DNA from: Limisphaerales bacterium
Lineage (GTDB): Bacteria > Verrucomicrobiota > Verrucomicrobiia > Limisphaerales > AAA164-E04
Assembly: GCA_024761205.1 (NCBI GenBank)
Contig: JAMASS010000029.1
Location: forward strand, 1-64,000
DNA length: 64,000 nt
Reading direction: 5' to 3'
Position 1 is the first letter of the stretch. Each line of letters opens with the position of its first letter. Below the pieces are notes generated by a model. The model saw nothing but the letters and a program-made list of their open reading frames with translations. It was not told where the DNA came from and did not search any database. Shown here in pieces: positions 31,825-63,120 of the stretch. The position numbers and the translations under genes were made by a program.

Positions 31825-33428
31825 GAGAAAATATCACTTTCCAGTTCTTGAAACACACTAGTTGTTTCTTTCAGTGCAGGAACCAAATGCTGTAAGGCGA
31901 ATTCCTTACACGCGTTACCCAAGTGCCCAAGATGTGTTGATCTTTTAATTCGATTTAGAACTTGCTGGGTTACATTCTTCATATCGCTCACCGATATACC
32001 AGATGGGAGAAGACTAGACTGGTAATCAAGAATTTCTTCTACAACATCCCCTTTCTCTTTTGACTTGAGAAATGTCTCCAGAACTTCTGGTGCATACAAG
32101 TAGTTCTCAATTTCTCTTCGGCCAAGTACACGTATCCCATTCTTGATTTTCTCCTTTCGCACATCGTCCGTCATGTCGTCGCGGTCAATGAGGCGATAAA
32201 CATTGATACCTTTCGCGACACGCTCAAGAATCATTATCAGATCTTCGCTATTCTCAACTTGCTTTGAGCTGCCGCGAGACATAAATAAGGTGTCAGAATG
32301 TGTACTAGAAAAAATTTGATTGTAGCAATCAGCATCAAATCCCTTATCTATCTCGGATCTGCTTCCCTCACAGATGACTATATTTTTAGGCGCGATCAGG
32401 TCAGATAGGTCATCAAGCGCGACCTCATAGGTTGTCTTCCAGAAAGTGCGATCTGTCGCTCTAGGTGTTAGCTCTACTTTTTGGTCAAAGTCCCGACCAG
32501 AAAAGTCCAAGAAGACCACGTCATTATTTTTCTGCATCATTTCATACGCTTTCCGAACAAAACCCACGGAGTGTGTTGCAATCCACAATTGCGACTCTTC
32601 TGGTATAAGACCAATCATCGTTTCTAGAAGACGTCCATGAAGTGCTGTAGCAACGTGGGCCTCCGGTTCATCAATACAGTAGATCGCATTCTGATACTCG
32701 TCACGTTTGACGGATATGTCCAGCAACAGATCGAAGGCTGCCTTTTCACCTCCAGACAGATTTTTGTAGTGGAAGTCAGATGCCGTGCCCTTGTCAAATC
32801 GGAAGGTGCCGGAGTCTTGGAGCCCGCCAAAATCCTGAAGTTCCAGAACTGGGTGTGTGAAGAGCGTCTTCATGGCTTTTTGCAAATCCCCGAGTACTTT
32901 CCTTCGATAGTCGTCAAATGTGGTTTTGCCGGATCCTTTTCCGAATAGATCCTTCAGGCCCTGCCACGTTAATCGACGGTAATTGTCGGACACTGCTGTG
33001 GCATCGGTATCGATGATGCGTCCGAAGCGTTGGGTCTCTGCTGCTGTCTTTACACACTCTAGGGTAGCGGTTTGAGAATCTGCCTCGTTGCGATAGGCCG
33101 ACCGGATGTAGAATGCAGCGGCCCATTCATCACGCTGGAGGTCGCGTCCATGAAAACTCACGTCAATCTTTTGCCGAACGCCGCCCGTGGACTGTGGTCG
33201 CGCGTCTGCGGTTGACGTGTCCTTCACGTAATAGTCAACCTGTTTGTTGGAAAGACCGAAGTTGCTTATCGCTTCCTGTGATTTGAGAAGGAACGCGTCG
33301 AACAGCGACGATTTGCCAGAGCCATTTGGGCCGATCAATACGACCAGCTTAGCCGACTCAGGTATTTCATCTACGCGAAGGTCTGTAAAGCGCTTATAGT
33401 TGCGCAACCGGACACTTTTGATTCTCAT
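31821..33428 (-). CDS. Fused ABC-type ATPase and TOPRIM/DUF4435-like nuclease (PARIS/OLD-like defence protein)
   Basis: About 535 residues. N-terminal ATPase: Walker A GPNGSGKSS (33-41), signature LSGGEKAAFDLLLDI (~232), Walker B YCIDEPEAHV and H-loop IATHSVGFV. From ~350 a TOPRIM-type domain: IVICEGSRSEIDKGFDADCY (catalytic Glu), FMSRGSSKQVEN, YRLIDRDDMTDD (acidic pair) and GRREIENYLY, the last typical of DUF4435. ATPase plus TOPRIM nuclease is the composition of OLD proteins and of the AriA-AriB (PARIS) anti-phage pair, which is sometimes fused. PARIS senses phage anti-restriction proteins, so its coupling to hsdS (ATGA overlap) makes sense. Start chosen at MRIKSV (33428). OLD versus PARIS remains open. 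Confidence 0.75.
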   Translation of the reverse strand: MRIKSVRLRNYKRFTDLRVDEIPESAKLVVLIGPNGSGKSSLFDAFLLKSQEAISNFGLSNKQVDYYVKDTSTADARPQSTGGVRQKIDVSFHGRDLQRDEWAAAFYIRSAYRNEADSQTATLECVKTAAETQRFGRIIDTDATAVSDNYRRLTWQGLKDLFGKGSGKTTFDDYRRKVLGDLQKAMKTLFTHPVLELQDFGGLQDSGTFRFDKGTASDFHYKNLSGGEKAAFDLLLDISVKRDEYQNAIYCIDEPEAHVATALHGRLLETMIGLIPEESQLWIATHSVGFVRKAYEMMQKNNDVVFLDFSGRDFDQKVELTPRATDRTFWKTTYEVALDDLSDLIAPKNIVICEGSRSEIDKGFDADCYNQIFSSTHSDTLFMSRGSSKQVENSEDLIMILERVAKGINVYRLIDRDDMTDDVRKEKIKNGIRVLGRREIENYLYAPEVLETFLKSKEKGDVVEEILDYQSSLLPSGISVSDMKNVTQQVLNRIKRSTHLGHLGNACKEFALQHLVPALKETTSVFQELESDIFS

Positions 33429-33430
33429 GG

Positions 33431-33611
33431 CTACGATGTGCTCCACTTCAACTCAGGCGGACGCGGGTACGTTGACCTGGCGTTCGGGTTGCCGAGCCAT
33501 ATCTTTCCTGCCCGCGCCCTCTGCAGCAGTTCGTCGTCCGGGTCGAGGCCGTGTGGCGCGCAGACACTCGCTGAGCTGGCTCTTCAAGGTGCGGATTCCG
33601 ATGGTCTTCAT
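33431..33611 (-). pseudogene. Phd/YefM-type antitoxin, internally deleted relic
   Basis: From 33611 the minus strand reads MKTIGIRTLKSQLSECLRAT, the standard N-terminus of Phd/YefM antitoxins (MKTVGIRELK--LSEYLR). A different frame then gives LDPDDELLQRARAGKIWLG and NPNARSTYPRPPELKWS, the usual C-terminal end of the same family, stopping 2 bp before the ATG of the ATPase gene. The DNA-binding centre between them (GETVLVTDRG-type) is missing and the frame has shifted. No PIN or RelE toxin is beside it. Confidence 0.6.
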
Positions 33612-42702: not shown

Positions 42703-43372
42703 CTAACCTACTCGCAGGATTCCTCTGATACTTCCGGCCTGCTTAATGACTCGCTTATGTTGAAGCCGCCATTGAAGGGCATTTGAAATAGTCAAGTACC
42801 CTAGTTTCGGCGTGTTTTTCAGTAACTCTTCAGCGAGTTCCACGGCTTCGGTATCGTCTATGGGAAGGTTTCGATCACTCATGAATGCGACTAGGTCATC
42901 TGAGTTGCCGTTACGCTTAAGTATGTCTCGAATGCCCCCGCGTGGTTTGGTAGTCAGCAGTACGCGATGCGTCGACAAAAATGGCATGGAGGATTTTGAG
43001 TCTTGCAGTTCGACTGACTTTATCATCTGTCTTCTCATAGACGAATACGAGCAGAGAGTATCCCAGCCCCAGCACCTTCTGTCGAGCAGACCTGAATGGG
43101 GAAGACGATTGTGGCTGCCTGATGCTTGTTACTTTCAAATCGCCATTGAGATCAGGGAAGTCGATTCCGATGGCCGAACTGCCTTCCTCGTACGTGTACT
43201 CCGTATGGAGCAGTTTCTGGAACTTGTGTTCCAAGTAAGTACCCACCGCTTTGCCGTCCGTCACACCATACAGGCTTGGTTCTTGATGAATGGATTCCGC
43301 TGTTGCAAAGGCAGCCGCTTCCGTTCGAAGTGCCTCGGTGGTCAGTTGGGGTTTCATGGATACGTTCGCCAC
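42703..43372 (-). pseudogene. Type II restriction endonuclease, frameshifted
   Basis: The first frame (43372-42917) gives ESIHQEPSLYGVTDGKAVGT, a helical segment LEHKFQKLLHTEYTY, and the catalytic PD-(D/E)XK-type core GIDFPDLNGDLKVTS (D...D-x-K). It then runs out at YQTTRGHSRHT. The second frame (43038-42703) continues TKPRGGIRDILKRNGN and WRLQHKRVIKQAGSIRGIL to a stop 3 bp before the methyltransferase. Joined, they make ~223 residues. The shift lies near 42950, in a stretch of C/G and A runs. The catalytic core precedes the shift, so a truncated product would lose the C-terminal ~75 residues. Confidence 0.65.
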
Positions 43373-43559
43373 TGTGGTGAAGTGGTCTTGTTTGTTGGGC
43401 AGCCGAGGGCCGAAACAAAGCGTGCTGCGATGGATGTGAGGCCCTCAATGAATGCAATATGTCGCGCCGGTTGGGCAATGTCAAAGGCGCTGTGGTTGGC
43501 GTGAACCCGAAGTGGAAATGTCGTCTTTTGTCCAATTTGGAAATGTTGCCTTTGACGCA

Positions 43560-45722
43560 CCCGCCGTCATTCGCTCCCCGTGGCCAAGATTTGATGTTGA
43601 TCATGCCATCGCGATTGCTAGCGTCGAATCTCTGTCCTTCAACACTGTGATCTTTGAATCCGAGCGGAAACAAATCCACACCAGCCATGGCGTTGTTTTC
43701 TTGCATGGACACGTAGGCCAATTGGCTGCCCGGAGTAACGGTGATGTATTCCGGTTCCAAATCTTCAGCCAAGCCCGAAGATGCGCACGCCACCTCTTGC
43801 AGGGTGTCACTAAAAAAGTTGTAGGGCGTAAAATCGATCGTCGCCACCGCAGCCTGAGACAAGTTCACCACGTTGACAAACGACCCCGAACCCAGGTCAA
43901 TCACCGAGATCAATCCGAGCGGATCAACGGTGTACTTATCGTTTGGCTCGCCCTCATTGACGGTCAGCACCCTTGATGCCACCCAGTCTGAATGTCACCA
44001 TGTCGGGAAGCACACCCACTTGAACACGATTCAGTTCGGTTCCCAACCGCGGGTCCAAGAACACGACAAATCCATCTTGCAAGAAATCGTCGTTCTCAAC
44101 GGCAGCCGCTACAATACCCTTGGTGACAGCGACGCTGTTTACGTTGCGCCCAATTCGCCGATGGAGAATTCCAAAGTCGGTGCTTCCGGGTTGTGGTCTA
44201 ACACATCGATGCCGTTGATGAAGACGTTGGTCTCGAAACGGGCGAATTTGCCCAACTCGTTGAAGACTTGTGCCCGAGGATCCACGGGAGCATCCGAAAG
44301 ATCCACCACGCCACCGAGCGCTTCGTGGATGCAATCAGCGAGAATCTGTTGCTCCCCCATCTCTGGCCGAAGAAGTTAGCCGACTCTCATCAAAACTTAC
44401 GGCTTCAAAAACCCGATAACCGTCACCTCCGGCAACCAAGAAACTGTTTTCCATCGCAACCAAAAGCTCACAGCCGGTCAACTCAATGATCACAAGTCCA
44501 ATCGTCAGTTTGGTAACGTTGGGACCGAGAATCGTATCGCAAACGCCGCTGCCATTCTCAAGCGCGATATCCATGCTGACTTCCAATCCCTCGCATCGGC
44601 CGAATCGGCGAGCCCATCACAACGCAGAATCACTGGCCAACCGTCCTAGATTTGTCTCCCGAGTTCGAACATCCGCCCGAGCACCGTTCAGCGCCGAAAC
44701 TATCGTTTCGACGCCCTTCTGAAGCAACGGGGATGTTCACCAACGCACCAAAGCCAGCCTGCACTTCATCCGACGCCTGCAAAGTGGGCACGAGCAATTC
44801 TGTGCTGACCTCTGCAATCGCTTCGGACGTGCTCGCAATCGGACAGCTGCGCTCATCAGTGTGCGTGATCAGGCCCTGAGCATTGAAACTCGCGATCAGA
44901 TTACCCACGTAGCGATACATCTGATCGTTGTCCACGACGAAGACAGGATTGCCCTCAGCATCCTCGGGCAAGGTCGGATAATCTGCTGAAGGACTATCCT
45001 CCGGACGCAAAAGGTTGAATGGGCCATCCGGTTCTGACTTGACCATGAGGCCGTGCTGCCAGCCGCAACGATGATATACGATACCGCGCAGTTCACTGGC
45101 CGATAGCGGATCGCCGGTGAAATCCTGCGCGTGATCCAACAAAATGATTTTGTTCACACCCTGCGCCTTCAGAAGATACACCTGCTCAAGCTCTGGCGGG
45201 ATAGTGGACTCCAAAGGCTGGTTATTCTCCGGATTTCGGCCGCCCACGAAGCCGAGCCCCGGCAGGTTCACATCCGTATCATCAATCACATTGAAGAAGT
45301 CCGCCGGTGCGCGGCCAATCAAACCAATGCGCTCACCATTGACTTCAACCCATGTGCTGTTGGCCGCGCCGCTGGACCCTTCTTCGCTAATCTCAATCGC
45401 CGGAACGCCTTCCGAAAGCCGCACCATTTGAGAAGTCCAGATTGACCGCCAAAAACGGATACTCGGACGCATTTGACAAACGGGCGAAATCATCAATGCC
45501 GCCGTCAAACGCATGATTGCCGATCCCGTTGGCCGTCAGCCCCATCGCATTGAAGAAGGCAATATCGCCCAAACCACGCGCGCTCAAAAAGTCCACTTCC
45601 GCGGTGGCTTGATAAAACGGACTCGGTAGAGTGTGATCGCTTGCCGTGAGGTAAATCGAGGCTAGCCCCTCGTGTTCCTCCAAGATATTCAAACCGCGAA
45701 CGACGGCGCCATAGTTCAGCAA
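43560..45722 (-). pseudogene. Extracellular 5'-nucleotidase-type metallophosphatase plus choice-of-anchor I domain, decayed
   Basis: Reading right to left: NYGAVVRGLNILEEHEGLAS, HTLPSPFYQATAEVDF and ANGIGNHAFDGGIDDF (metal motif GNHEFD with E changed to A) come first. Then, in another frame, EVNGERIGLIGRAPADFFNV, VNKIILLDHAQDF and DNDQMYRYVGNLIASF, the metallophosphatase body. Further pieces (ETNVFINGIDVLDHNPEAP; GIVAAAVENDDFLQDGFVVF; LTVNEGEPNDKYTVDPLGLI; DLEPEYITVT; YVSMQENNAMAGVDL) are the choice-of-anchor I family propeller. At least four frame changes. An intact version would be ~750+ residues. The relic ends near 43560, beside the restriction gene. Confidence 0.7.
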
Positions 45723-46862: not shown

Positions 46863-47429
46863 CTAGGTCGATTGCCCAGCGCAATGGCAATTGTGGCCGC
46901 AGGTTGGAGTAGATGGATTTTGTGAAGGATTGACAGGGGCTGGGTGTTCGGCGGGTTCGGCGCCAACGAAATCTGCAAGTTCACATATGGCGTCGTAGTA
47001 GGCGCCAACGTCTAGGCCAAGCAGAGCGGCGCCATAGATGAGGCAATGGTCGTCGGAGATGATTTTGCCGAAGTTGATGACGGGTATCATGTAGGACACG
47101 GCGCGGACTAGGTAGTCGGGGTGTTTGCCGAGGATGGGGCGCAGATAGAGCATGACGCCGCCAGGGTTTCGAATATCGGGCTCCGGGTGTGCGAATTGGT
47201 GCGTGCCCATCTCACCAAACTCGAGCACTAGTCGGGTCGGATAGCGGATGAACTCGGAGTCCGCCAAGAATGCCCCTAGGTTGGATGGCCGCAGGCCTCG
47301 GTATTTGTCGCGGGCGTGACCGGCTTGTGCTCTAAGTCGAGACGTGAGCCCGTCCTCGGCGACGTTGGCCAGCTCCGCTTCTGACATGCGCCGGAGTTCG
47401 TCGACGGTATCGAGTAGATTTTTTTCCAT
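46863..47429 (-). CDS. Unknown soluble protein, last gene of the octaheme cytochrome operon
   Basis: 188 residues, not recognised. It has an all-helical N-terminus (MEKNLLDTVDELRRMSEAEL), a middle with FGEMGTHQFAHPEPDIRNPG, LYLRPILGKHPDYLVRAVSY and DDHCLIYGAALLGLDVGAYY, and a Cys/His-rich end CGHNCHC that could bind a metal or heme. There is no signal peptide. It starts 7 bp after the octaheme cytochrome stop, so it is surely co-transcribed and may assist assembly or metal delivery; that role is inference from position only. Confidence 0.7.
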   Translation of the reverse strand: MEKNLLDTVDELRRMSEAELANVAEDGLTSRLRAQAGHARDKYRGLRPSNLGAFLADSEFIRYPTRLVLEFGEMGTHQFAHPEPDIRNPGGVMLYLRPILGKHPDYLVRAVSYMIPVINFGKIISDDHCLIYGAALLGLDVGAYYDAICELADFVGAEPAEHPAPVNPSQNPSTPTCGHNCHCAGQST

Positions 47430-47436
47430 GGCAGGG

Positions 47437-48909
47437 TTACTTTGTGTAACGGCCTTGAAACTCTTCCACCGCAGCTTCGCGCCGGGCTTTTTCTTCGGGA
47501 TCCATTTTGTTCAGAAACCATTTGTGGTTGTCCCCGTTCAGTGTTTCGTCCAAGAGCCGAGCTAGGTTCTCAGCCGCTTGTTTGCGTGCTGGGTCATCGG
47601 AGTGGGTGTTGTGCTCCGCTAACTCGCGAAGTTCGGGGATGTATTCGGTGTAAAAGTTTCGGGCGATTTCGTAGGTGCCGTGCCAATGAGTATAGTCCGG
47701 CCCCATCATGCTGGCGCCATGTCGGGCGCGACGGCCTTCATGATGCCACAGTTCGAACCAGATGAAGTCGATCTTGTTGCTGAACTTTGGCTTGCTCAAA
47801 AGTGGTTGCGCGGCGTTGTAGAGTGCCAGTCCCGGCTTGGCGAACTTGTCATGGTAGAGATCGATGAGGGCGTCGTATTGAACATAGAATCCGTCGACGA
47901 AGTTACGATTGTGGCAGTTGATGCAGACGTTGATCATGTTCTCACGTCGTTTTTGCCAAGGCACGTCTTTGCCGGGTAGACCGAGTTTGGCATCAGATAC
48001 TTCCGGGCGAACGGAGATGGCGGGACGGTTGTTCCAGGAAATGCGCATCCCGACGTCGTGAGTCACGGGTTGGTCTTTGGTGGCGCTCATGTGACAGGTC
48101 GCACATGTAGCTGAGGCGCTGTAGTCTTCGCCTACCACCCACTTCGCGTTGTCGAGAGCCATTTTCTCAAGATTTGCATAGTAAGCGATGCCGTGTTTAG
48201 ACTCGTTAAAGATCTCCAAGTGCGGATGGTCCGGCCCCATATGGCATTTGCCGCACGTATCTGGAGTTCGTGCTTGAGCGGCGGAGAATTCGTGCCGGGA
48301 ATGACAGGCGGTGCAGGAGCCTTCGGAACCGTCGGGATTGATGCGTCCGATGCCGGTGTTGGGCCAAGTGGCGGGATCGAGTCGTCCATTCGCGAGCACC
48401 TTCACCTGTGAGCCATGGCACTGCCAACAGCCATTGACTGCCGCAGCAGATGTCCCGTGGGGAAATCCGGTTGTGATGAAGGCGTTATTGCCTTCCACCA
48501 CTTCGGCAAGGACGTTGTCGAGTGAACCGAGAATGCGGCCTCCCTTGGCGTGATGGGAGTCGTTGAATTCTTGAACTTCATGTTCGTGACAGCGGGCGCA
48601 ATCGCGGGGCGAAACGATCGTGGAAATGAATTGCCCATAATGGTCGTAGGCATCGGCATCCTGCTCGTTGGCGGTATGGCACTCAAAGCAACCCACGTTG
48701 GCTCGGAAGTGCTTTGAGGACCCCCATTGCTGATAGACGGCAGGACTCTGCGTTCGATGGCAGGCGGTGCAGACCGCGCTTTCGGCCGTGGGTCGCGACG
48801 GCGCGAAGGCGGCGTTTGAGCTGAGAGAAAACCAAAGGCCGTTGAGGGCCAGAATGAGCAGGCAGGTCAGGTGTTGTCGTGTTTCCATCGTTGCGAATTG
48901 TTTAATCAT
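47437..48909 (-). CDS. Octaheme cytochrome c, hydroxylamine oxidoreductase (HAO)-like
   Basis: 490 residues with a Sec leader (LTCLLILALNGLWFSLSSNA). Eight CxxCH heme sites start at C47, C74, C104, C161, C199, C219, C269 and C329. After heme 6 comes KCHMGPDHPH; the D227-H228 pair corresponds to the active-site Asp-His of HAO. The C-terminal LWHHEGRRARHGASMMGPDY and WHGTYE are also HAO-type. The family oxidises hydroxylamine/hydrazine (with Tyr-crosslinked P460 trimers) or reduces nitrite/hydroxylamine. With NrfD-type partners upstream, the reductive direction is more likely. Whether the crosslinking Tyr is present (candidate Y406) could not be settled. It overlaps the NrfD stop by 8 bp; an alternative start is M8. 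Confidence 0.88.
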   Translation of the reverse strand: MIKQFATMETRQHLTCLLILALNGLWFSLSSNAAFAPSRPTAESAVCTACHRTQSPAVYQQWGSSKHFRANVGCFECHTANEQDADAYDHYGQFISTIVSPRDCARCHEHEVQEFNDSHHAKGGRILGSLDNVLAEVVEGNNAFITTGFPHGTSAAAVNGCWQCHGSQVKVLANGRLDPATWPNTGIGRINPDGSEGSCTACHSRHEFSAAQARTPDTCGKCHMGPDHPHLEIFNESKHGIAYYANLEKMALDNAKWVVGEDYSASATCATCHMSATKDQPVTHDVGMRISWNNRPAISVRPEVSDAKLGLPGKDVPWQKRRENMINVCINCHNRNFVDGFYVQYDALIDLYHDKFAKPGLALYNAAQPLLSKPKFSNKIDFIWFELWHHEGRRARHGASMMGPDYTHWHGTYEIARNFYTEYIPELRELAEHNTHSDDPARKQAAENLARLLDETLNGDNHKWFLNKMDPEEKARREAAVEEFQGRYTK

Positions 48910-50137
48910 TGGAAAGAATCGGTTGAGTTTTGGCGTTGAGTTCGCCGCTCATGATAGGGATGGCGACATGCAGCATCCATGAATATATGAGGGCGCCGAA
49001 GGCCCAGATGCCGAGACAGGTCCAAGTCTCATTCCAGGTCGGTTGATATTCGACAAATTGGCCGAGTGGCGTGGGCACGAATCCTGGGATGATCAGGCCC
49101 ATCCCTTTCTCAATCCAAATGCCTACGATGAGGGAGACACACGCGATGTCCAATAGCCAGATGCGAGCTGCAAACGGCGAGATGAGAATGCCAAGAGCGA
49201 GTAGATTCAGGAACAGGGCGGTCCAAATCCACGGGACTAGTCGATCGTGGCCGTGATGGCCCAACCAGAGATACTTAGCCGAAATGCTGTGATACGTGCC
49301 GGAGTAGAACTCGACGAATAATTCGCATCCGAGCAGGAACACGTTGATTAATAGGGAGATCGTGACAATTCGGCGGAGCAGTTGGAGGGGTTCGTTGCCG
49401 ATGTAATAACCGGTCCAACGCCGAATCATTTGAAAGGTCAGAATGAGCAGCGCTGGTCCGGCTGCGAAGGCGGATGCCAGGAATCGGGGAGCGACGATTG
49501 GGTGATTCCAGAAAGGACGACCGGCGAGGCCGACATACAAGAACGCGGTCACCGTGTGGATGCTGATGGCCCAAAAGATGGCGATGAACACAAAGGGAAT
49601 GTAAAAGAGTTTGGTTGGCGTCTTGTCGAGATACTTCATGTAGAGCAGATAGCCGCAGATGTGGATGTTGAGCAGCAGATAGCCGTTGAGGACAATCACG
49701 TCCCAACTGAGCATGGAGATCGGCCAATTCATGCGCCCAAGGGGTGGGATGAGATGTAGGAAACGATCAGGGCGGCCGAGGTCCACGGTGACGAACAAAA
49801 GACACATCACGATGACGGCGATGGCCATGAGCTCGCCGAACAGGACCACCTTGTGCATGGATTCAATGCGGTAGATATAGGCCGGGATGACCAGCATCAC
49901 AGCAGCGGCCGCAACCCCGACCAAGAATGTGAAGTTGGCGATGTAAGCGCCCCAGGAAACTTGATTGGTCATCCCGGTGGTTTGGAGTCCGTTGACCAAC
50001 TGATGGGCCCAGGCATTCACCCCGATCAGTGAGATCACGCTCAAGAGTCCCATCCACGCGTAAAATCGCCAGCTTCCTTCCCAGGAGAGAAACCAGATTC
50101 GGCCGAGAAACTGAAGGTATTGTCTAGTGTGACCCAT
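48902..50137 (-). CDS. nrfD: NrfD/PsrC-like membrane subunit
   Basis: 411 residues, almost entirely membrane. About ten predicted helices, for example WMGLLSVISLIGVNAWAHQL (~28), FLVGVAAAAVMLVIPAYIYR, FIAIFWAISIHTVTAFLYV and IWTALFLNLLALGILISPFA. It belongs to the long NrfD/PsrC/HybB-type quinol-interacting anchors, which exchange electrons between the quinone pool and the periplasmic ferredoxin subunit. The gene lies 9 bp after the ferredoxin gene and overlaps the octaheme gene. Start ATG 50137. Confidence 0.88.
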   Translation of the reverse strand: MGHTRQYLQFLGRIWFLSWEGSWRFYAWMGLLSVISLIGVNAWAHQLVNGLQTTGMTNQVSWGAYIANFTFLVGVAAAAVMLVIPAYIYRIESMHKVVLFGELMAIAVIVMCLLFVTVDLGRPDRFLHLIPPLGRMNWPISMLSWDVIVLNGYLLLNIHICGYLLYMKYLDKTPTKLFYIPFVFIAIFWAISIHTVTAFLYVGLAGRPFWNHPIVAPRFLASAFAAGPALLILTFQMIRRWTGYYIGNEPLQLLRRIVTISLLINVFLLGCELFVEFYSGTYHSISAKYLWLGHHGHDRLVPWIWTALFLNLLALGILISPFAARIWLLDIACVSLIVGIWIEKGMGLIIPGFVPTPLGQFVEYQPTWNETWTCLGIWAFGALIYSWMLHVAIPIMSGELNAKTQPILSND

Positions 50138-50146
50138 ACCGCGATA

Positions 50147-51106
50147 CTAATCAAAAAAGTAATAGAACCTCGGAACAGTTCCGGCGTCCTCTTTGAGAAT
50201 ATAGACTCGCTTGTTCTGCAGGATGTAGTTGATTTCACTATCCGGATCCAAGAGATTGCCGAACACTCGGGCACCGGTCGGGCAGACCTCTAGGCAGGCC
50301 GGGTATTTTCCTTCGCGAGTGCGGTGAAGGCAGAAGGTACACTTTTCAACAACCCCTTGGGGGCGGAGGCGATTGCTGAGATACCCTTGATTGGGATTGA
50401 TGGCCTCGGGCGAAATGGTGGGTTTCTTCCAGTTGAACCGGCGAGCGTCGTAGGGACAGGCGGCCATGCAATAACGGCAACCGATGCACCAATTGTAGTC
50501 CACTACCACGACGCCATCGGGCTCCATCCAGGTCGCTTCAACGGGGCAGGCCTTGGTGCAGGGGGAGTCTTTGCATTGGTGGCATTGAACCGGCATGTAG
50601 TATTTACCTTTTTGCGGCACCTCGCCCTCGTAATACTGGTCGGATGCTTCGAGATTGATGGCTCCCTTGTCTAGCTCCAGCACCCGGATGTAGGACATTT
50701 CAATATCGTCGGCCGCATCTCGGGATTGGTTGTTTTCAGCCATGCAGGCATGGGCGCAGCGACGACAGCCGACGCATTTGGAAAGGCTGAGGGCGTAGGC
50801 GAATTCGATCCCTTCTTGCGGCTTGGTATCGGAGATGGTGCTGGTGACGCCGTAGTCTTTTTGGGTCTTGCGTTCCAATGAGTGAAGAATCCGTTGCATG
50901 TCCTCTGGACCAAGCTCCTGGTAATGTTTTTGCAGGAGGTCACTCAACGTGATTTCGCCTCGCTCAAGGGAGAGAAGCGGCTTGAGTGCGGTCACCAGCC
51001 CAGCGATCCCAACCATGGTCGCTCCAGTTCCTTTGAGAAACGTCCGCCGCCCGATCCTTCGGGGGGGCCTTGGTGTCGGGTGCTTGTCTGAGGAATTCGC
51101 CGTCAT
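50147..51106 (-). CDS. nrfC: Tat-exported ferredoxin subunit with four 4Fe-4S clusters (NrfC/PsrB-like)
   Basis: 319 residues. Twin-arginine leader GRRTFLKGTGATMVGIAGLV. Four Cys groups: CVGCRRCAHAC (~113), CHQCKDSPCTKACP (~175), CIGCRYCMAACP (~207) and CTFCLHRTREGKYPACLEVC (~256), i.e. 16 ligands for four cubane clusters. It relays electrons between the NrfD membrane subunit and the periplasmic cytochromes. Start overlaps the tetraheme stop (TGATG). There is no molybdopterin subunit in the operon, which argues against a polysulfide, DMSO or thiosulfate reductase and in favour of a cytochrome acceptor. Confidence 0.9.
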   Translation of the reverse strand: MTANSSDKHPTPRPPRRIGRRTFLKGTGATMVGIAGLVTALKPLLSLERGEITLSDLLQKHYQELGPEDMQRILHSLERKTQKDYGVTSTISDTKPQEGIEFAYALSLSKCVGCRRCAHACMAENNQSRDAADDIEMSYIRVLELDKGAINLEASDQYYEGEVPQKGKYYMPVQCHQCKDSPCTKACPVEATWMEPDGVVVVDYNWCIGCRYCMAACPYDARRFNWKKPTISPEAINPNQGYLSNRLRPQGVVEKCTFCLHRTREGKYPACLEVCPTGARVFGNLLDPDSEINYILQNKRVYILKEDAGTVPRFYYFFD

Positions 51107-51756
51107 CAGTGCTGCTTGTCTTTCGATCGAGAGGATTGAGCGGCTCGGGCCGGATACTTCGGAGGAGGGAGGCTCTCTACGGTCGGAAACTTTGGCTGAT
51201 GGGGATCATGGCACTCGATGCAGCGGAGTTTTGTCCGCTGGCCTCGGGTAGTGTCCCAATACCCGTTTTGTCTTCCGTGAACGCCTGCTTTCCAGTCGCG
51301 ATGGACGGTTCCATGACAGCGGGCACAGAGTGAAACGACATCCCGTTCAGCGATTTCCGAGCCGTCGTAGTCGACGAAGGCATTTCGATTTGTCGGGTGA
51401 TGGCAGTTGAGGCAGAAACGGTTGTTGCCGTGTTGCAGGGTGATCCCGCGGTGTTCGACCATAGGCCGATCGATCTGCCATTTCGGCGTTAGGGCCTTGT
51501 GACACTCCATGCAGTTGTATCGCCAACCAAGCTTGATCATATCTAGGCCGGTCGGCTGACGTGGGGGGTGTTTATCGAGATGGGTATCTTCGGCTGGCGA
51601 GACCGGTGCGGTTTGGCGGGCTTGTTGTGTGTTCGGGTTGTTTGGTGATTGGGCGTCGCTGGAGATGAGGGGGGCTGTTAGGAGCAGGAAACCGCCAAGA
51701 ATGGCGGATGCAGCCGCAGTGGTTGCCTTGGACACCCGTTTCTTGTGCTTTGCCAC
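51106..51756 (-). CDS. Tetraheme cytochrome c (electron carrier of the operon)
   Basis: 216 residues with an N-terminal leader (AAASAILGGFLLLTAPLISS). Four CxxCH sites: CMECH (~82), CLNCH (~115), CARCH (~143) and CIECH (~179), with extra His residues between them for bis-His coordination. It resembles the NapC/NrfB-like small multiheme carriers, but without the membrane anchor of NapC. As the first gene of the operon it probably shuttles electrons from the ferredoxin subunit to the octaheme cytochrome. No obvious promoter box was identified in the ~120 bp upstream, which is also the downstream end of the next gene. Confidence 0.88.
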   Translation of the reverse strand: MAKHKKRVSKATTAAASAILGGFLLLTAPLISSDAQSPNNPNTQQARQTAPVSPAEDTHLDKHPPRQPTGLDMIKLGWRYNCMECHKALTPKWQIDRPMVEHRGITLQHGNNRFCLNCHHPTNRNAFVDYDGSEIAERDVVSLCARCHGTVHRDWKAGVHGRQNGYWDTTRGQRTKLRCIECHDPHQPKFPTVESLPPPKYPARAAQSSRSKDKQH

Positions 51757-58357: not shown

Positions 58358-59383
58358 CTAGGCGGAGAGCTCCAACATGCGATCGATCGGCGCGCGGGCG
58401 CGAGCCATCAGATCGAGCGCCAACTCAAGCTTCGGCTCTCGGGACTCCATACAGGCGTGGAGTTTGCTGAGCGTGTTCAGCTTCATGTATTTGCACTCAT
58501 TGCAGCGGCACGAATCCGTGGGAGCGGGGATGAACTCCTTATCAGGACACTCTTTTTTGAGTCGGTGTAGCATACCGGATTCGGTGGCAATGATGATCGC
58601 TCTGGCGTCGGAGGCCTTGCAATAGCCGACCATTTTCTCAGTGGAACAGATCTCATCGGCTAAGAGTCTGACGGACTTGGTACATTCGGGATGGGCCACT
58701 AGTGGTGCGTCGGGATGGGACTCCCGAATGTTCATGATGCTGTCATGGGTGAACTCGACGTGGGCGTAACAATTGCCCTGCCAAAGGGTCATGGGGCGGT
58801 TGGTTTGTTCGGTTACCCAAGCGCCCAAATTCTCATCGGGAACGAACAACAAGTCCCGATCCTTGGGCGCCGCTTCGACGATCTTCTTGGCGTTGCCGCT
58901 GGTACAAATCACATCGCTCAACGCCTTGACCTCGGCGCTGCAATTGATGTAGGCGATGGTGTAAAAATTAGGGTTCCGAGCTTGGAATGCTTCGAGCCGA
59001 CCCGCCGGACAACTTTGTTCAAGCGAGCAACCGGCGTCTCGATCCGGCAAAATCACGGTCTTGGCGGGGTTGATGATCTTGGCGGTTTCCGCCATGAAAT
59101 GCACCCCGCAAAACACGATAACCTCAGCTTCCGTCTTGGCCGCCTGTTGTGAAAGCCCGAGGGAATCGCCCACGTAATCCGCCAGGTCTTGGATTTCCGG
59201 CGCCTGGTAATTGTGCGCGAGAATCACTGCGTTTAGCTCGCCCTTGAGCCGGAGGACCTCTTGTGACAACCGATCAAGATGCCTTGGCGTGGACGGTTCA
59301 CGGACCCTCAGGTCCGGTCCGCCACGGTGCTCAAGTGTGATCGGATCGCCCATCGGTGCAAAGTTTATATCTCGAAAAATCAT
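58358..59383 (-). CDS. nadA: Quinolinate synthase
   Basis: 341 residues. Condenses iminoaspartate (from NadB) with dihydroxyacetone phosphate to quinolinate for NAD synthesis, using a 4Fe-4S cluster. VILAHNYQAPEIQDLADYVG (~53) and VIVFCGVHFMAETAKIINP (~88, first cluster Cys) are followed by the middle SDVICTSGNAKKI (~157; Cys of CTSGN) and the C-terminal cluster Cys region CRCNECKYMKLNT (~293). GVHFMAET and the cysteines are intact. Start: ATG 59383 or the in-frame ATG 59350 (MGDPITLEH). It lies 49 kb from nadB, so the NAD genes are dispersed; nadC was not seen. Confidence 0.93.
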   Translation of the reverse strand: MIFRDINFAPMGDPITLEHRGGPDLRVREPSTPRHLDRLSQEVLRLKGELNAVILAHNYQAPEIQDLADYVGDSLGLSQQAAKTEAEVIVFCGVHFMAETAKIINPAKTVILPDRDAGCSLEQSCPAGRLEAFQARNPNFYTIAYINCSAEVKALSDVICTSGNAKKIVEAAPKDRDLLFVPDENLGAWVTEQTNRPMTLWQGNCYAHVEFTHDSIMNIRESHPDAPLVAHPECTKSVRLLADEICSTEKMVGYCKASDARAIIIATESGMLHRLKKECPDKEFIPAPTDSCRCNECKYMKLNTLSKLHACMESREPKLELALDLMARARAPIDRMLELSA

Positions 59384-59547
59384 CTTGGCAACGATTTGTC
59401 ACCAAAGTTTGGCCGAACAACGGCGCTCCCGCCGGCGGCACTCGCCCCACTGACCGGCCTCGCTTAAGGCGGTCAGGGAGCCTGCCTTCTGCTGGCGCCC
59501 GAAAAAAACCTTGCCGCAAGGCTCCCCAAAGCACACCCTCCCCGCCA

Positions 59548-60495
59548 ATGAAAACTTATATGAAATCCCTTACTAAACACTTGCCCCTCCCGACAGCTGC
59601 CGCCGTGAAACCCGGAAAACCGCTCTTGGCAATCCTCTGCCTCGCCGCCCTCTCACTCACCGCCCGCGCCCAACAAGTTGACGCAGTGTCCGTCACCATC
59701 GTGTGGTGGGAAAACGGAAGCTCCGAAATCTTCCACTACCCCAAGGACTCAACGCAACTGATTTTGGCCGGTCTAAAGTTTTACAGCGTCGCCTTCAGCA
59801 AAGGCTGGACGAATCTGAAGAGGTTGGATCTTGCGAACAACAGCCTGAGGAGCCTGACTTTGCCCGAAGACATGACGAGTCTGGAGGAGTTGCTTCTTAG
59901 TGGCAACTACCTGAGGAGCCTGACGCTGCCCGAAGACCTGGCGAGTTTGAAGGTGTTGGATCTTCAGGGCAACCAACTGACGAGCCTGACGCTGCCCGAA
60001 GACCTGGCGAGTTTGAAGGTGTTGGATCTTCAGGGCAACCAACTGAGGAGCCTGACGCTGCCCGAAGGCTTGACGAGTCTGAAGGTGTTGGATCTTCAGG
60101 GCAACCAACTGACGAGCCTAACCCTGCCCGAAGACCTGGCGAGTCTGGAGGTGTTGGATATTCAGAGCAACGACCTGCAGCTGCTGACCCTGCCAGAGGG
60201 CATGACGAGTCTGAGGCGGTTGAATCTTGCGTTCAATCCCATTGGGGTATTGCGAATGCCACAGGGTTTCCATTTTTCCGAGCTCAGTTTTTCCGAACGT
60301 TTCAGTGTCGACGTGACTTATTATTATTACGACCCGCCGCCCGTGGAGCCGCCGGCCGAAGTTGAGTTCATGCTGCAATGGGCGGATTCGGTGGAGGGCC
60401 CTTGGATGCCGTTGGTTGTTTCCGACGGCGTGGTGCGTCTGCCCAACGAAGGCGGGAGGCGGTTCTTCCGACTCGCACCGGCGGGCGAGAATTAG
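59548..60495 (+). CDS. Secreted leucine-rich-repeat protein 1
   Basis: 315 residues. Signal peptide LLAILCLAALSLTARAQQ, then a variable cap (VSVTIVWWENGSSEIFHYPK), about six 22-residue LRRs of the form LTSLTLPEDLASLKVLDLQGNQ (split here: LTSLTLPEDLASLKVLDLQG), then a shared C-terminal module (LQWADSVEGPWMPLVVSDGV, VRLPNEGG, RFFRLAP). LRR arrays usually mediate protein binding; the binding partner is unknown. The first of three tandem paralogues. Start chosen at ATG 59548 because the signal peptide follows directly; the open frame upstream is non-coding. DNA of neighbouring repeats is nearly identical. Confidence 0.85.
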   Translation: MKTYMKSLTKHLPLPTAAAVKPGKPLLAILCLAALSLTARAQQVDAVSVTIVWWENGSSEIFHYPKDSTQLILAGLKFYSVAFSKGWTNLKRLDLANNSLRSLTLPEDMTSLEELLLSGNYLRSLTLPEDLASLKVLDLQGNQLTSLTLPEDLASLKVLDLQGNQLRSLTLPEGLTSLKVLDLQGNQLTSLTLPEDLASLEVLDIQSNDLQLLTLPEGMTSLRRLNLAFNPIGVLRMPQGFHFSELSFSERFSVDVTYYYYDPPPVEPPAEVEFMLQWADSVEGPWMPLVVSDGVVRLPNEGGRRFFRLAPAGEN

Positions 60496-60591
60496 AGGGC
60501 CTTGCAACTGTTGGCCGAGGGGCGGGAAACAGCTGCCGGCGCCCGAGAAAAACCTTGCCGCAAGTCTCCCCAAAGCACACCCTTCCCGCCA

Positions 60592-61605
60592 ATGAAAAAT
60601 CACGTGAAATCCCTCGCCAAACACTTGCCCCACCCGACGGCTGCCGCCATGAAACCCGGAAAACCGCTCTTGGCAGTCCTCTGCCTCGCCGCCCTCTCAC
60701 TCACCGCCCGCGCCCAACAAGCTGACGCAGTGTCCGTCATCTTCGAGGTAGGTAGGGGAAGCTCCGAAACCCACCACTACCCCAAGGACACGACGCAACT
60801 GGATTTGTCCCAGCGAGAGTTGACCGGCAGCGTCGGCTTCAGCAGAGGCTGGACGAATCTGAAGGGGTTGGATCTTTCGGGCAATGACCTGCAGAGCCTG
60901 ACGCTGCGTGAAGACATGACGAGTTTGGAGTGGTTGAATCTTGCAAACACTGGCCTGCAGAGTCTGACGCTGCCCGAAGGCTTGATGAGTCTGAAGTGGT
61001 TGAATCTTGCAAGCACTGGCCTGAGGAGCCTGACGCTGCCTAAAGGCATGACGAATCTGGAGTGGTTGAATCTTTCAAACATCCACAACCTGAGGAGCCT
61101 GCCCGAAGGCTTAACGGGTAGTCTGAAGTCGTTGTATCTTTCGGGCAACAGACTGGAGAGCCTGACGCTGCCTAAAGACATGACAAATCTGGAATGGTTG
61201 GATCTTTCGAGCACCCACAACCTGCAGAGCCTGACGCTGCCCGAAGGCTTGACGAATCTGAAGGGGGTGGATCTTGGGGGCACTGACGATCTGAGGAGCC
61301 TGACGCTGCCCGAAGACATGACGAGTCTGAGAATATTAGACCTTACGAGTGCTCCCATTGGGGTGTTACGGGTGCCGCGGGGTTTCAATCTTTCCGAGCT
61401 TGATCTTCGCGGATTTTTCAAGGACGGCGTGACTTATTACGGCCCGCCGCCTGTGGAGCCGCCGGCCGAGCTTGAGTTCATGCTGCAATGGGCGGATTCG
61501 GTGGAGGGCCCTTGGATGCCGTTGGTTGTTTCCGACGGCGTGGTGCGTCTGCCCAACGAAGGCGGGAAGCGGTTCTTCCGGCTCGCACCGGCGGGCGAGA
61601 ATTAG
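60592..61605 (+). CDS. Secreted leucine-rich-repeat protein 2
   Basis: 337 residues. Same signal peptide (LLAVLCLAALSLTARAQQ), cap (VSVIFEVGRGSSETHHYPKD) and C-terminal module as its neighbours. It has about eight LRRs, with WLNLA and WLDLS variants and two repeats of 23 residues (for example NLSNIHN, DLSSTHN). The 96 bp before its ATG are almost identical to those before gene 3, and partly to those before gene 1. It is therefore a tandem duplicate including its leader region. No internal stops; probably functional. Confidence 0.85.
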   Translation: MKNHVKSLAKHLPHPTAAAMKPGKPLLAVLCLAALSLTARAQQADAVSVIFEVGRGSSETHHYPKDTTQLDLSQRELTGSVGFSRGWTNLKGLDLSGNDLQSLTLREDMTSLEWLNLANTGLQSLTLPEGLMSLKWLNLASTGLRSLTLPKGMTNLEWLNLSNIHNLRSLPEGLTGSLKSLYLSGNRLESLTLPKDMTNLEWLDLSSTHNLQSLTLPEGLTNLKGVDLGGTDDLRSLTLPEDMTSLRILDLTSAPIGVLRVPRGFNLSELDLRGFFKDGVTYYGPPPVEPPAELEFMLQWADSVEGPWMPLVVSDGVVRLPNEGGKRFFRLAPAGEN

Positions 61606-61701
61606 AGGGCCTTGCAACTGTTGGCCGAGGGGCGGGAAACAGCTGCCGGCGCCCGAGAAAAACCTTGCCGCAAGTCTCCCCAAAGCACACCCTTCCCGCC
61701 A

Positions 61702-63120
61702 ATGAAAAATCACGTGAAATCCCTTACTAAACACTTGCCCCTCCCGACAGCTGCCGCCGTGAAACCCGGAAAACCGCTCTTGGCAATCCTTTGCCTCGCC
61801 GCCCTCTCACTCACCGCCCGCGCCCAACAAGCTGACGAAGTATCCGTCACCTTCATGCGGGAAGACGGAAGCTCCGAAACCCGCCACTACCCCAAGGACA
61901 CGACAGAACTGGATTTGACCGATCGAGAGTCAACCAGCATCACCTTCAGCAGAGGCTGGACGAATCTGAAGAAGTTGGATCTTTTTGCCAGCCAACTGAC
62001 GAGCCTGACTTTGCCCGAAGGCATGACGAGTCTGGAGTCATTGTGGCTTGGGGGCAGCGGCCGGACGAGGAGCTCGTGGAGTCTGACGCTGCCCGAAGAC
62101 ATGACGAGTCTGAAGGAATTGAATTTTAGGAGCAACGGCCTGACGAACCTGACGCTGCCCAAAGGCTTGGCGAGTCTGGAGAGGTTGTGGCTTGTGGGCA
62201 ACCGCCTGACGAGCTGGACGCTGCCCGAAGGCCTGACGAGTCTGTGGTGGTTGCATCTTTCGGGCAACGGACTGACGAGCTGGACGCTGCCCGAAGGCTT
62301 GACGAGTCTGGAGTCGTTGAGTCTTTCGGGCAACCGCCTGACGAGCCTGACGCTGCCCGAAAGCTTGACGAGTCTGGAGACGTTGGATCTTTCGCGCAAC
62401 GAACTGACGAGCTGGACGCTACCCGAAGGCTTGACGAGTCTGGAGAGGTTGGATCTTTCGGACAATCAACTGACGAGCCTGACGCTACCCGAAGGCCTGA
62501 CGAGTCTGAAGACGTTGAATCTTTGGGGCAATCAACTGGCGAGCCTGACGCTGCCCGAAGACATGATGAGTCTGGTGGAGTTGGAACTTAGGCACAACGA
62601 GCTGACGAGCCTGCCCTTGTCCGAAGGCTTGACGAGTCTGGAGACGTTGAATCTTGAGAACAACAGACTGACGAGCTGGACGCTGTCCGAAGGCTTGGCG
62701 AGTTTGGAGACGTTGACTCTTGGGGCCAACGAACTGACGAGCCTGACCTTGCCCGAAGGCTTGGCGAGTCTGGAGACGTTGACTCTTCAGAACAACCCAA
62801 TGATGAGCCTGACCCTGCCTGAGGGCCTGACGAGTTTGAGCATATTGGATCTTGTGGGTGCTCCCATTGGGGTATTACGAGTGCCGCGGGGTTTCAATCT
62901 TTCTGGTCTCAATCTTTACGGCTTTTCCAAGGACGGCGTGACTTACTATGACCCGGCTCCCGGGCCGCCGGTCGAGCTTGAGTTCATGCTGCAATGGGCG
63001 GATTCGGTGGAGGGCCCTTGGACGAGGGCGACGCGCGCCACCATCACGGAGGGCGTGGTGCGTCTGCCCAACGAGGGCGGGAAGCGGTTCTTCCGGCTGG
63101 TGCCGGCGGGCGGGGATTGA
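61702..63120 (+). CDS. Secreted leucine-rich-repeat protein 3
   Basis: 472 residues, the longest of the three, with about thirteen 22-residue LRRs. Many carry a W in the variable strand position (LTSWTLPEGLTSLESLSLSG), a feature not seen in gene 1. The N-terminus is as in gene 2. The C-terminal module differs slightly (PWTRATRATITEGVVRLPNE). Repeat-number differences (6, 8, 13) between paralogues suggest expansion by unequal crossing-over. The next gene starts 163 bp downstream. Confidence 0.85.
   Translation: MKNHVKSLTKHLPLPTAAAVKPGKPLLAILCLAALSLTARAQQADEVSVTFMREDGSSETRHYPKDTTELDLTDRESTSITFSRGWTNLKKLDLFASQLTSLTLPEGMTSLESLWLGGSGRTRSSWSLTLPEDMTSLKELNFRSNGLTNLTLPKGLASLERLWLVGNRLTSWTLPEGLTSLWWLHLSGNGLTSWTLPEGLTSLESLSLSGNRLTSLTLPESLTSLETLDLSRNELTSWTLPEGLTSLERLDLSDNQLTSLTLPEGLTSLKTLNLWGNQLASLTLPEDMMSLVELELRHNELTSLPLSEGLTSLETLNLENNRLTSWTLSEGLASLETLTLGANELTSLTLPEGLASLETLTLQNNPMMSLTLPEGLTSLSILDLVGAPIGVLRVPRGFNLSGLNLYGFSKDGVTYYDPAPGPPVELEFMLQWADSVEGPWTRATRATITEGVVRLPNEGGKRFFRLVPAGGD

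What the first reader, a model, noticed from the sequence alone, without database searches (positions are those of the whole stretch)
46863..51756. Octaheme HAO-like cytochrome in an nrfBCD-like operon
Five overlapping or near-abutting genes: a tetraheme cytochrome, a Tat ferredoxin with four clusters, an NrfD quinol subunit, an octaheme cytochrome with the HAO Asp-His pair (GPDHPH), and a small unknown protein. In E. coli nrf, NrfB-NrfC-NrfD feed pentaheme NrfA. Here an HAO-type octaheme enzyme takes that place and there is no molybdopterin subunit. This suggests a quinol-driven nitrite, NO or hydroxylamine reductase (or the reverse, oxidation feeding the quinone pool). The linkage of HAO-like enzymes to NrfCD is not one I know as a described complex.
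Basis: partly seen in the sequence, partly recalled or inferred. Interest (0 to 1): 0.75.

Follow-up and report, generated by a model that had tools for sequence, protein, structure and literature searches.

The report
Quinol-fed octaheme nitrogen-oxide reductase operon
A five-gene bacterial operon most likely passes electrons from the membrane quinone pool to an eight-heme cytochrome that reduces nitrite, probably to ammonium, and the same gene set recurs, often beside nitrate reductase genes, in several phyla whose genomes mostly lack the textbook nitrite reductases.

Summary
The operon is real: five genes on the minus strand, 51756-46863, overlapping by at most 8 nt or separated by at most 9 nt. 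It encodes a tetraheme cytochrome, a Tat-exported protein with 16 Cys (four 4Fe-4S sites), an NrfD-family quinol subunit, an octaheme cytochrome (OCC), and a small protein with no Pfam match. Two labels need correction. The membrane pair is DsrO/DsrP-type (10 predicted TM), not E. coli NrfCD-type. The OCC groups with Ignicoccus IhOCC, outside the HAO/HOX/HDH clade, and has His408 where HAO carries its cross-linking Tyr; a His there marks the reductive form. The four-gene core is conserved (52 of 60 relatives with enough flank, several phyla), and 26 of 80 loci carry napA nearby. In 31 of 45 module-bearing genomes no NrfA, NirK or NirS was found. Best reading: a quinol:nitrite reductase working like NrfABCD, most likely forming ammonium (reaction inferred, not shown). 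Prior art: the same gene content and order next to nap was noted in Thermosulfurimonas dismutans and Dissulfuribacter thermophilus (2017) as a possible nitrite reductase, and MccACD is a known octaheme-plus-NrfCD complex, for sulfite. A new variant of a known kind, widespread and apparently uncharacterised.

The parts
51106..51756 (-). Tetraheme c-type cytochrome (216 aa, 4 CXXCH, N-terminal signal peptide or anchor); proposed relay from the Fe-S protein to the octaheme enzyme, NrfB-like in role
   Evidence: position conserved upstream of the Fe-S gene in 58 of 80 loci
50147..51106 (-). Tat-exported ferredoxin with 16 Cys = four [4Fe-4S] sites, DsrO-like
   Evidence: DsrO 179.5 bits, below the 200 cut-off; NrfC 113 bits; Cys positions, RRTFLK
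48902..50137 (-). NrfD-family integral membrane quinol subunit, DsrP-type, 10 predicted TM segments
   Evidence: Pfam NrfD 1.1e-35; DsrP 406.4 bits over the 350 cut-off; hydropathy
47437..48909 (-). Octaheme cytochrome c of the HAO superfamily, IhOCC side; proposed catalytic subunit. D227-H228 pair kept; His408 at the HAO cross-link Tyr position
   Evidence: PDB 4qo5 best; tree; residues; model and fold search
46863..47429 (-). Small protein without signal peptide or Pfam match, Cys-rich C-terminal tail; family found at 51 of 80 loci, sometimes after napDAB instead of directly after the octaheme gene; role unknown (possible maturation or assembly factor)
   Evidence: (model pLDDT 90)

Best explanation
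The operon encodes a periplasm-facing quinol:nitrogen-oxide oxidoreductase. The DsrP-type membrane subunit oxidises (mena)quinol; electrons pass through the four Fe-S clusters of the DsrO-type protein to the tetraheme cytochrome and on to the octaheme enzyme, whose heme 4 without Tyr cross-link reduces nitrite, most likely by six electrons to ammonium, and probably also NO and hydroxylamine. It works like E. coli NrfABCD with the pentaheme NrfA replaced by a reductive octaheme cytochrome. Shown here: the genes, conserved order, family placement, cofactor motifs, missing Tyr, linkage to napA, and no detected canonical nitrite reductase in most carriers. Inferred: the electron path, the substrate, and ammonium rather than NO as product (about 60:40).
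For: Operon structure and cofactor motifs. Core gene order in 58 of 80 relatives, and FeS + NrfD in 52 of 60 with enough upstream flank; subunit distance matrices correlate (Mantel r 0.71-0.86). Octaheme protein related to IhOCC (2e-51); tree split 100/100 from HAO/HOX/HDH/HAOr. His, not Tyr, at the cross-link position; PMC12758564 describes reductive enzymes with His at the key site. NapA in 26 of 80 loci, NapD/NapB/NapG in some. Of 45 module genomes, strong NrfA in 5, NirK in 10, NirS in 1, union 14. Hcp strong in 9 of 45 and not found in the window genome, so a free-hydroxylamine route needing Hcp is not general. Same gene content and order beside nap in two experimentally nitrate-ammonifying thermophiles without nrfA (PMC5276818).
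Against: No biochemistry. No nap or nar gene was recognised in the window's own genome (95% complete), so it would rely on outside nitrite or use another substrate. 10 of 45 carriers also have NirK. Eight loci with enough upstream flank carry this octaheme gene without the module, so it can work with other partners. Genes next to the window operon are unrelated to nitrogen. Ammonium as product is not tested; HAOr, which also lacks the Tyr, makes NO.
Confidence: 0.62

Rival explanations
1. NO-forming version: the complex reduces nitrite by one electron to NO, replacing NirK/NirS in partial denitrifiers, as proposed for HAOr of Kuenenia and for octaheme proteins of Phycisphaerae.
For: HAOr, also without Tyr, makes NO from nitrite, slowly (PMC12485887); PMC11266412 proposes this for octaheme proteins in Phycisphaerae lacking nirK/nirS.
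Against: 10 of 45 carriers also have NirK, redundant for this step. A quinol chain with four Fe-S clusters and four relay hemes suits a many-electron reduction. No NosZ found in the window genome, though that search had no positive control. HAOr lies in the other clade of the tree.
Confidence: 0.22
2. Oxidative enzyme: hydroxylamine (or hydrazine) oxidation feeding electrons into the quinone pool.
For: Same superfamily as HAO/HOX/HDH and same Asp-His pair; NrfD-type subunits can in principle run towards quinone reduction.
Against: Cross-link Tyr replaced by His, the mark of the reductive form (PMC12758564); NapA beside the module in 26 of 80 loci; outside the oxidative clade.
Confidence: 0.06
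3. Sulfur-compound respiration: the octaheme enzyme reduces sulfite, tetrathionate or another sulfur species, as MccA and OTR do; the DsrOP-like pair reflects that.
For: Subunits O and P are nearest to DsrO/DsrP; MccACD combines a multiheme cytochrome c sulfite reductase with NrfCD-type subunits (PMC8076601); PMC5276818 kept a sulfur role open for the same locus.
Against: NapA, not sulfur genes, recurs beside the module. No MccA or OTR match at E <= 1e-3 among solved structures. No dsrA match in 45 genomes, but that search had no positive control.
Confidence: 0.1

Closest known systems
TDIS_0606-0609 / DBT_2326-2329 of Thermosulfurimonas dismutans and Dissulfuribacter thermophilus (PMC5276818)
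   Same: HaoA homolog, NrfD, 4Fe-4S protein, cytochrome c in the same order read backwards; in an 11-gene cluster with napMADGH; both organisms ammonify nitrate and lack nrfA
   Different: Sequences could not be fetched and compared here; the paper leaves the function open; window operon has no nap beside it
E. coli NrfABCD
   Same: Overall plan: NrfD quinol subunit, four-cluster ferredoxin, small multiheme cytochrome, terminal multiheme enzyme
   Different: Octaheme, all-CXXCH enzyme instead of pentaheme NrfA with CXXCK; DsrP-type membrane subunit with 10 predicted TM instead of 8; tetraheme instead of pentaheme NrfB
MccACD of Wolinella succinogenes (sulfite)
   Same: A multiheme (octaheme, from general knowledge) cytochrome c coupled to NrfC/NrfD-type subunits
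   Different: MccA is another multiheme family; the window enzyme matches IhOCC and HAO, and no MccA match was seen
IhOCC of Ignicoccus hospitalis (PDB 4qo5)
   Same: Closest solved structure; same side of the tree (100/100); no cross-link Tyr
   Different: About 32% identity over the VIA-aligned part; Asp-Val instead of Asp-His; no Tat ferredoxin encoded in that genome (PMC4429474)
HAOr (kustc0458, PDB 6h5l) and nap-hao of Deferribacter autotrophicus (PMC6896113)
   Same: Reductive HAO-like octaheme cytochromes; in Deferribacter, next to nap and proposed for nitrite ammonification
   Different: HAOr is in the other clade of the tree and partnered by kustc0457; the Deferribacter cluster carries hcp and a decaheme cytochrome, with no NrfD module described
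DsrMKJOP
   Same: O and P subunits are the nearest named relatives of the Fe-S and membrane proteins
   Different: No DsrM/DsrK seen in the operon; octaheme enzyme present; 4 hemes instead of the 3 of DsrJ

Membership tests
HAO superfamily of octaheme cytochromes (OCC) | Eight c-type heme motifs and sequence similarity to solved members | tested here: met
   8 CXXCH; 4qo5 2e-51, 6h5l 1e-17, 1fgj 2e-16; Foldseek top five hits are all family members
Oxidative HAO/HOX/HDH | Tyr that cross-links to heme 4 of the neighbouring subunit (Y491 of PDB 6m0p) | tested here: not met
   Aligned residue is His408, His in nearly all homologs
Oxidative HAO/HOX/HDH | Placement inside the HAO/HOX/HDH clade | tested here: not met
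   Groups with IhOCC, split 100/100; some long branches in the set
Reductive octaheme cytochromes (IhOCC, HAOr, epsilon-HAO) | No cross-link Tyr | tested here: met
Reductive octaheme cytochromes (IhOCC, HAOr, epsilon-HAO) | Nitrite or hydroxylamine reductase activity | not testable with these tools
NrfA / ONR | Active-site heme with CXXCK motif | tested here: not met
   All eight motifs are CXXCH; no NrfA or ONR sequence match at 1e-3
MccA sulfite reductase | Sequence match to the MccA family | tested here: inconclusive
   No match at E <= 1e-3 among solved structures; its special heme motif was not tested directly
NrfABCD complex | NrfD membrane subunit with 8 TM and NrfC as best match | tested here: not met
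   DsrP/DsrO are best; 10 hydrophobic segments
DsrMKJOP complex | DsrP-type membrane subunit over the curated cut-off | tested here: met
   406.4 bits, cut-off 350
DsrMKJOP complex | DsrM, DsrK and triheme DsrJ in the same operon | tested here: not met
   None in the five-gene operon; the cytochrome has 4 hemes

The most novel reading that the evidence does not exclude
A so far unrecognised quinol-linked nitrite-ammonification complex, built from a reductive octaheme cytochrome on a DsrOP-type, possibly ion-translocating module, is a major nitrate/nitrite-to-ammonium route in Verrucomicrobiota, Planctomycetota and several other phyla, missed because its enzyme is annotated as hao (nitrification) and its membrane subunit as DsrP (sulfur); the conserved small protein would be a new dedicated assembly factor.
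Probability: 0.35. Interest if true: 0.75.

Novelty: new variant of a known kind. Interest (0 to 1): 0.52.

Why it matters
Surveys of ammonifiers count nrfA and onr; PMC10716430, for example, treated HAO and ihOCC sequences as distant homologs when checking for false positives. If this complex reduces nitrite to ammonium, many carriers (31 of 45 checked have no recognised NrfA, NirK or NirS) would be wrongly scored as unable to reduce nitrite, or as nitrifiers because of the HAO label. It also gives the reductive octaheme family a concrete quinol partner, which makes energy conservation testable.

Tried and rejected
The AF2 model of the octaheme protein (no hemes, 35-row alignment) has low confidence at residues 205-234, so no cross-link or trimer conclusion was drawn from it; the Tyr question was settled by alignment instead. 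VIA-align showed no ONR, OTR or MccA at high Z, which excludes nothing. The small protein has no significant Foldseek hit; its VIA matches to IrrE/PprI and selecase metallopeptidases (Z 5.2-8.5) are at the level of chance best hits and I saw no HExxH motif in the family alignment, so this is only a lead. dsrA and nosZ searches gave no match but had no positive control. NapA/NarG profiles in the window genome hit only low-scoring molybdopterin proteins on contigs C17 and C9, not nitrate reductase. Reading the C17 region with TGA as Sec used the wrong frame and settled nothing. epsilon-HAO, ONR and OTR sequences could not be fetched for the tree. Ferousi 2021 is not held.
Full report
Observation. 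The five genes are present as described, on the minus strand from 51756 to 46863: 216-aa tetraheme cytochrome, 319-aa Tat Fe-S protein, 411-aa NrfD-family protein, 490-aa octaheme cytochrome, 188-aa small protein. Neighbours overlap by 1 or 8 nt or are 7-9 nt apart, so one transcription unit is likely. Four and eight CXXCH motifs, 16 Cys and a Tat motif were counted. GC of the operon (55.8%) is like the window (54.7%). The next genes on either side are an NAD-dependent epimerase and fragments of a choice-of-anchor-I protein, not nitrogen genes.

Identity of the electron-transfer module. NCBIfam gives DsrP for the membrane subunit (406 bits, cut-off 350) and DsrO as the best model for the Fe-S protein (180, cut-off 200), ahead of NrfC (113). 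Hydropathy shows 10 segments, as published for DsrP (PMC8076601) against 8 for E. coli NrfD (PMC12285233). No DsrM or DsrK is in the operon, so this is a DsrOP-type quinol module in another setting, comparable in plan to NrfCD or MccCD.

Identity of the octaheme protein. The closest solved structure is IhOCC, 4qo5 (2e-51), then kustc0458 (6h5l) and HAO (with the profile). Reference paralogs came from a Scalindua genome and PDB rows from alignments. A careful IQ-TREE of 35 rows puts the window family with IhOCC against HAO, HOX, HDH and kustc0458, support 100/100, with the caution that some branches are long (the row it labels kuste4574 is 6h5l, i.e. kustc0458). At the column of HAO Tyr491 (6m0p numbering) the window has His408, and nearly all relatives have His. 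The Asp-His pair of HAO is kept (D227-H228), whereas IhOCC has Asp-Val. PMC12758564 states that oxidative enzymes have Tyr and reductive ones His at this site, and that most non-anammox bacterial members are predicted to be reductive. Scalindua also carries two further members of this family (L130, L131) and an IhOCC-like protein (L132).

Distribution. A scan of one genome per species found 252 stretches encoding relatives and kept the best 80, 63-79% identical over their best segments. The core order tetraheme - FeS - NrfD - octaheme, or the variant with the octaheme gene first, is present in 58 of the 80; of 60 with at least 3.6 kb upstream, 52 carry NrfD and FeS. The octaheme-first variant is in Myxococcota and Bdellovibrionota loci L061, L083 and L086. 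Phyla with the core include Verrucomicrobiota, Planctomycetota (with Scalindua), Kiritimatiellota, Hydrogenedentota, Myxococcota, Bdellovibrionota and one MAG labelled Proteobacteria. Distance matrices of the subunits correlate (Mantel r 0.71-0.86, none of 2000 permutations as high), as expected if they travel together; shared organism ancestry would also contribute. The small protein family is found at 51 of 80 loci. Of 13 genomes whose octaheme locus showed no NrfD (several of these contigs are short), 11 lack a P0002-like protein at 1e-30 and two have one at 43-45% identity. Within the window's genus the trait is patchy: present in G002, absent from the single-contig G001.

Link to nitrate reduction. 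NapA lies in 26 of 80 loci, often as octaheme-napD-napA-cytochrome-small protein; two of three NapA tested pass the curated cut-off of NF010055 (931 and 917 against 904), the third does not (660), and NapD, a NapB-like and a NapG-like protein are recognised. With roughly one napA per several Mb, a hit in a third of windows of up to 17 kb is far above chance (inference). Among 45 module-bearing genomes, strong hits were NrfA 5, NirK 10, NirS 1 (union 14), so 31 have no recognised nitrite reductase; most are MAGs of unknown completeness. Hcp was strong in 9 of 45. The window genome has no recognised NapA, NarG, NrfA, NirK, NirS or Hcp.

Mechanism. Quinol oxidation at the DsrP-type subunit, electrons through four Fe-S clusters and four hemes to the octaheme enzyme, nitrite reduced at heme 4. 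The module and motifs are shown; electron path, substrate and product are inferred. I favour ammonium because the chain suits a many-electron reaction, because NO formation would be redundant in the carriers that also have NirK or NirS, and because the same gene set occurs beside nap in two nitrate-ammonifying thermophiles without nrfA (PMC5276818). NO is the main rival, since the related HAOr makes NO.

Small protein. Its predicted model is confident (pLDDT 90), but no fold match is significant by Foldseek. Matches to IrrE/PprI and selecase metallopeptidases (Z up to 8.5 over about 100 residues) are at the level seen for unrelated best hits, and I saw no HExxH motif in the family alignment. 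Conservation beside the octaheme gene or after napDAB suggests a role in assembly, unproven.

Prior work. Slobodkina et al. 2017 (PMC5276818) described the same four gene types next to nap and proposed nitrite reduction, with a sulfur role as alternative. PMC6896113 proposed nap-hao ammonification in Deferribacter without an NrfD module. PMC11266412 noted 'Onr' octaheme proteins in Phycisphaerae. The NrfD review lists many complexes including MccACD, but the words octaheme, HAO and hydroxylamine do not occur in its text, and octahaem only in one reference title. No characterised HAO-superfamily + NrfD complex was found in ten literature searches of open-access papers; subscription papers were not covered.

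Verdict. Real, conserved, likely a reductive N-oxide complex; known enzyme class with an uncharacterised quinol module, partly anticipated in the literature. New variant of a known kind.

Noticed in passing
window 59356-63120 (+): Three tandem ORFs with near-identical N- and C-terminal parts and long runs of 66-nt (22-aa) leucine-rich repeats; copies share 218-300-nt blocks at 90-97% identity, so a recent triplication.
   Followed up: partly
window 43152-45722 (-): A choice-of-anchor-I protein (PF22494) and adjoining ORF fragments in different frames; looks like one large gene broken by frameshifts (decay or assembly error).
   Followed up: partly
L130 1-2301, L131 1-2401, L132 1-2601 (Scalindua genome G040): The anammox bacterium Scalindua carries, besides the module copy (L075), two more members of this octaheme family and one IhOCC-like protein, on other contigs.
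   Followed up: partly
L036, L045, L048, L052, L056, L066, L068, L074: Octaheme gene without the tetraheme-FeS-NrfD genes, mostly Planctomycetota; its electron donor there is unknown.
   Followed up: partly
L023 10187-11716, L077 13821-15218 and others: An Alginate_exp-family (PF13372) outer-membrane porin recurs beside the module in about 18 loci; possibly a nitrate/nitrite channel.
   Followed up: partly
G000:C17:37447-39474 (-): Molybdopterin oxidoreductase, weak NapA-profile match with one in-frame TGA reported; preceded by a NuoF-like C-terminus; possibly formate dehydrogenase, frame not resolved.
   Followed up: partly
window 30148-33446 (-): Type I restriction specificity subunit (PF01420) next to an AAA ATPase gene: probable restriction or defence remnant.
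   Followed up: no
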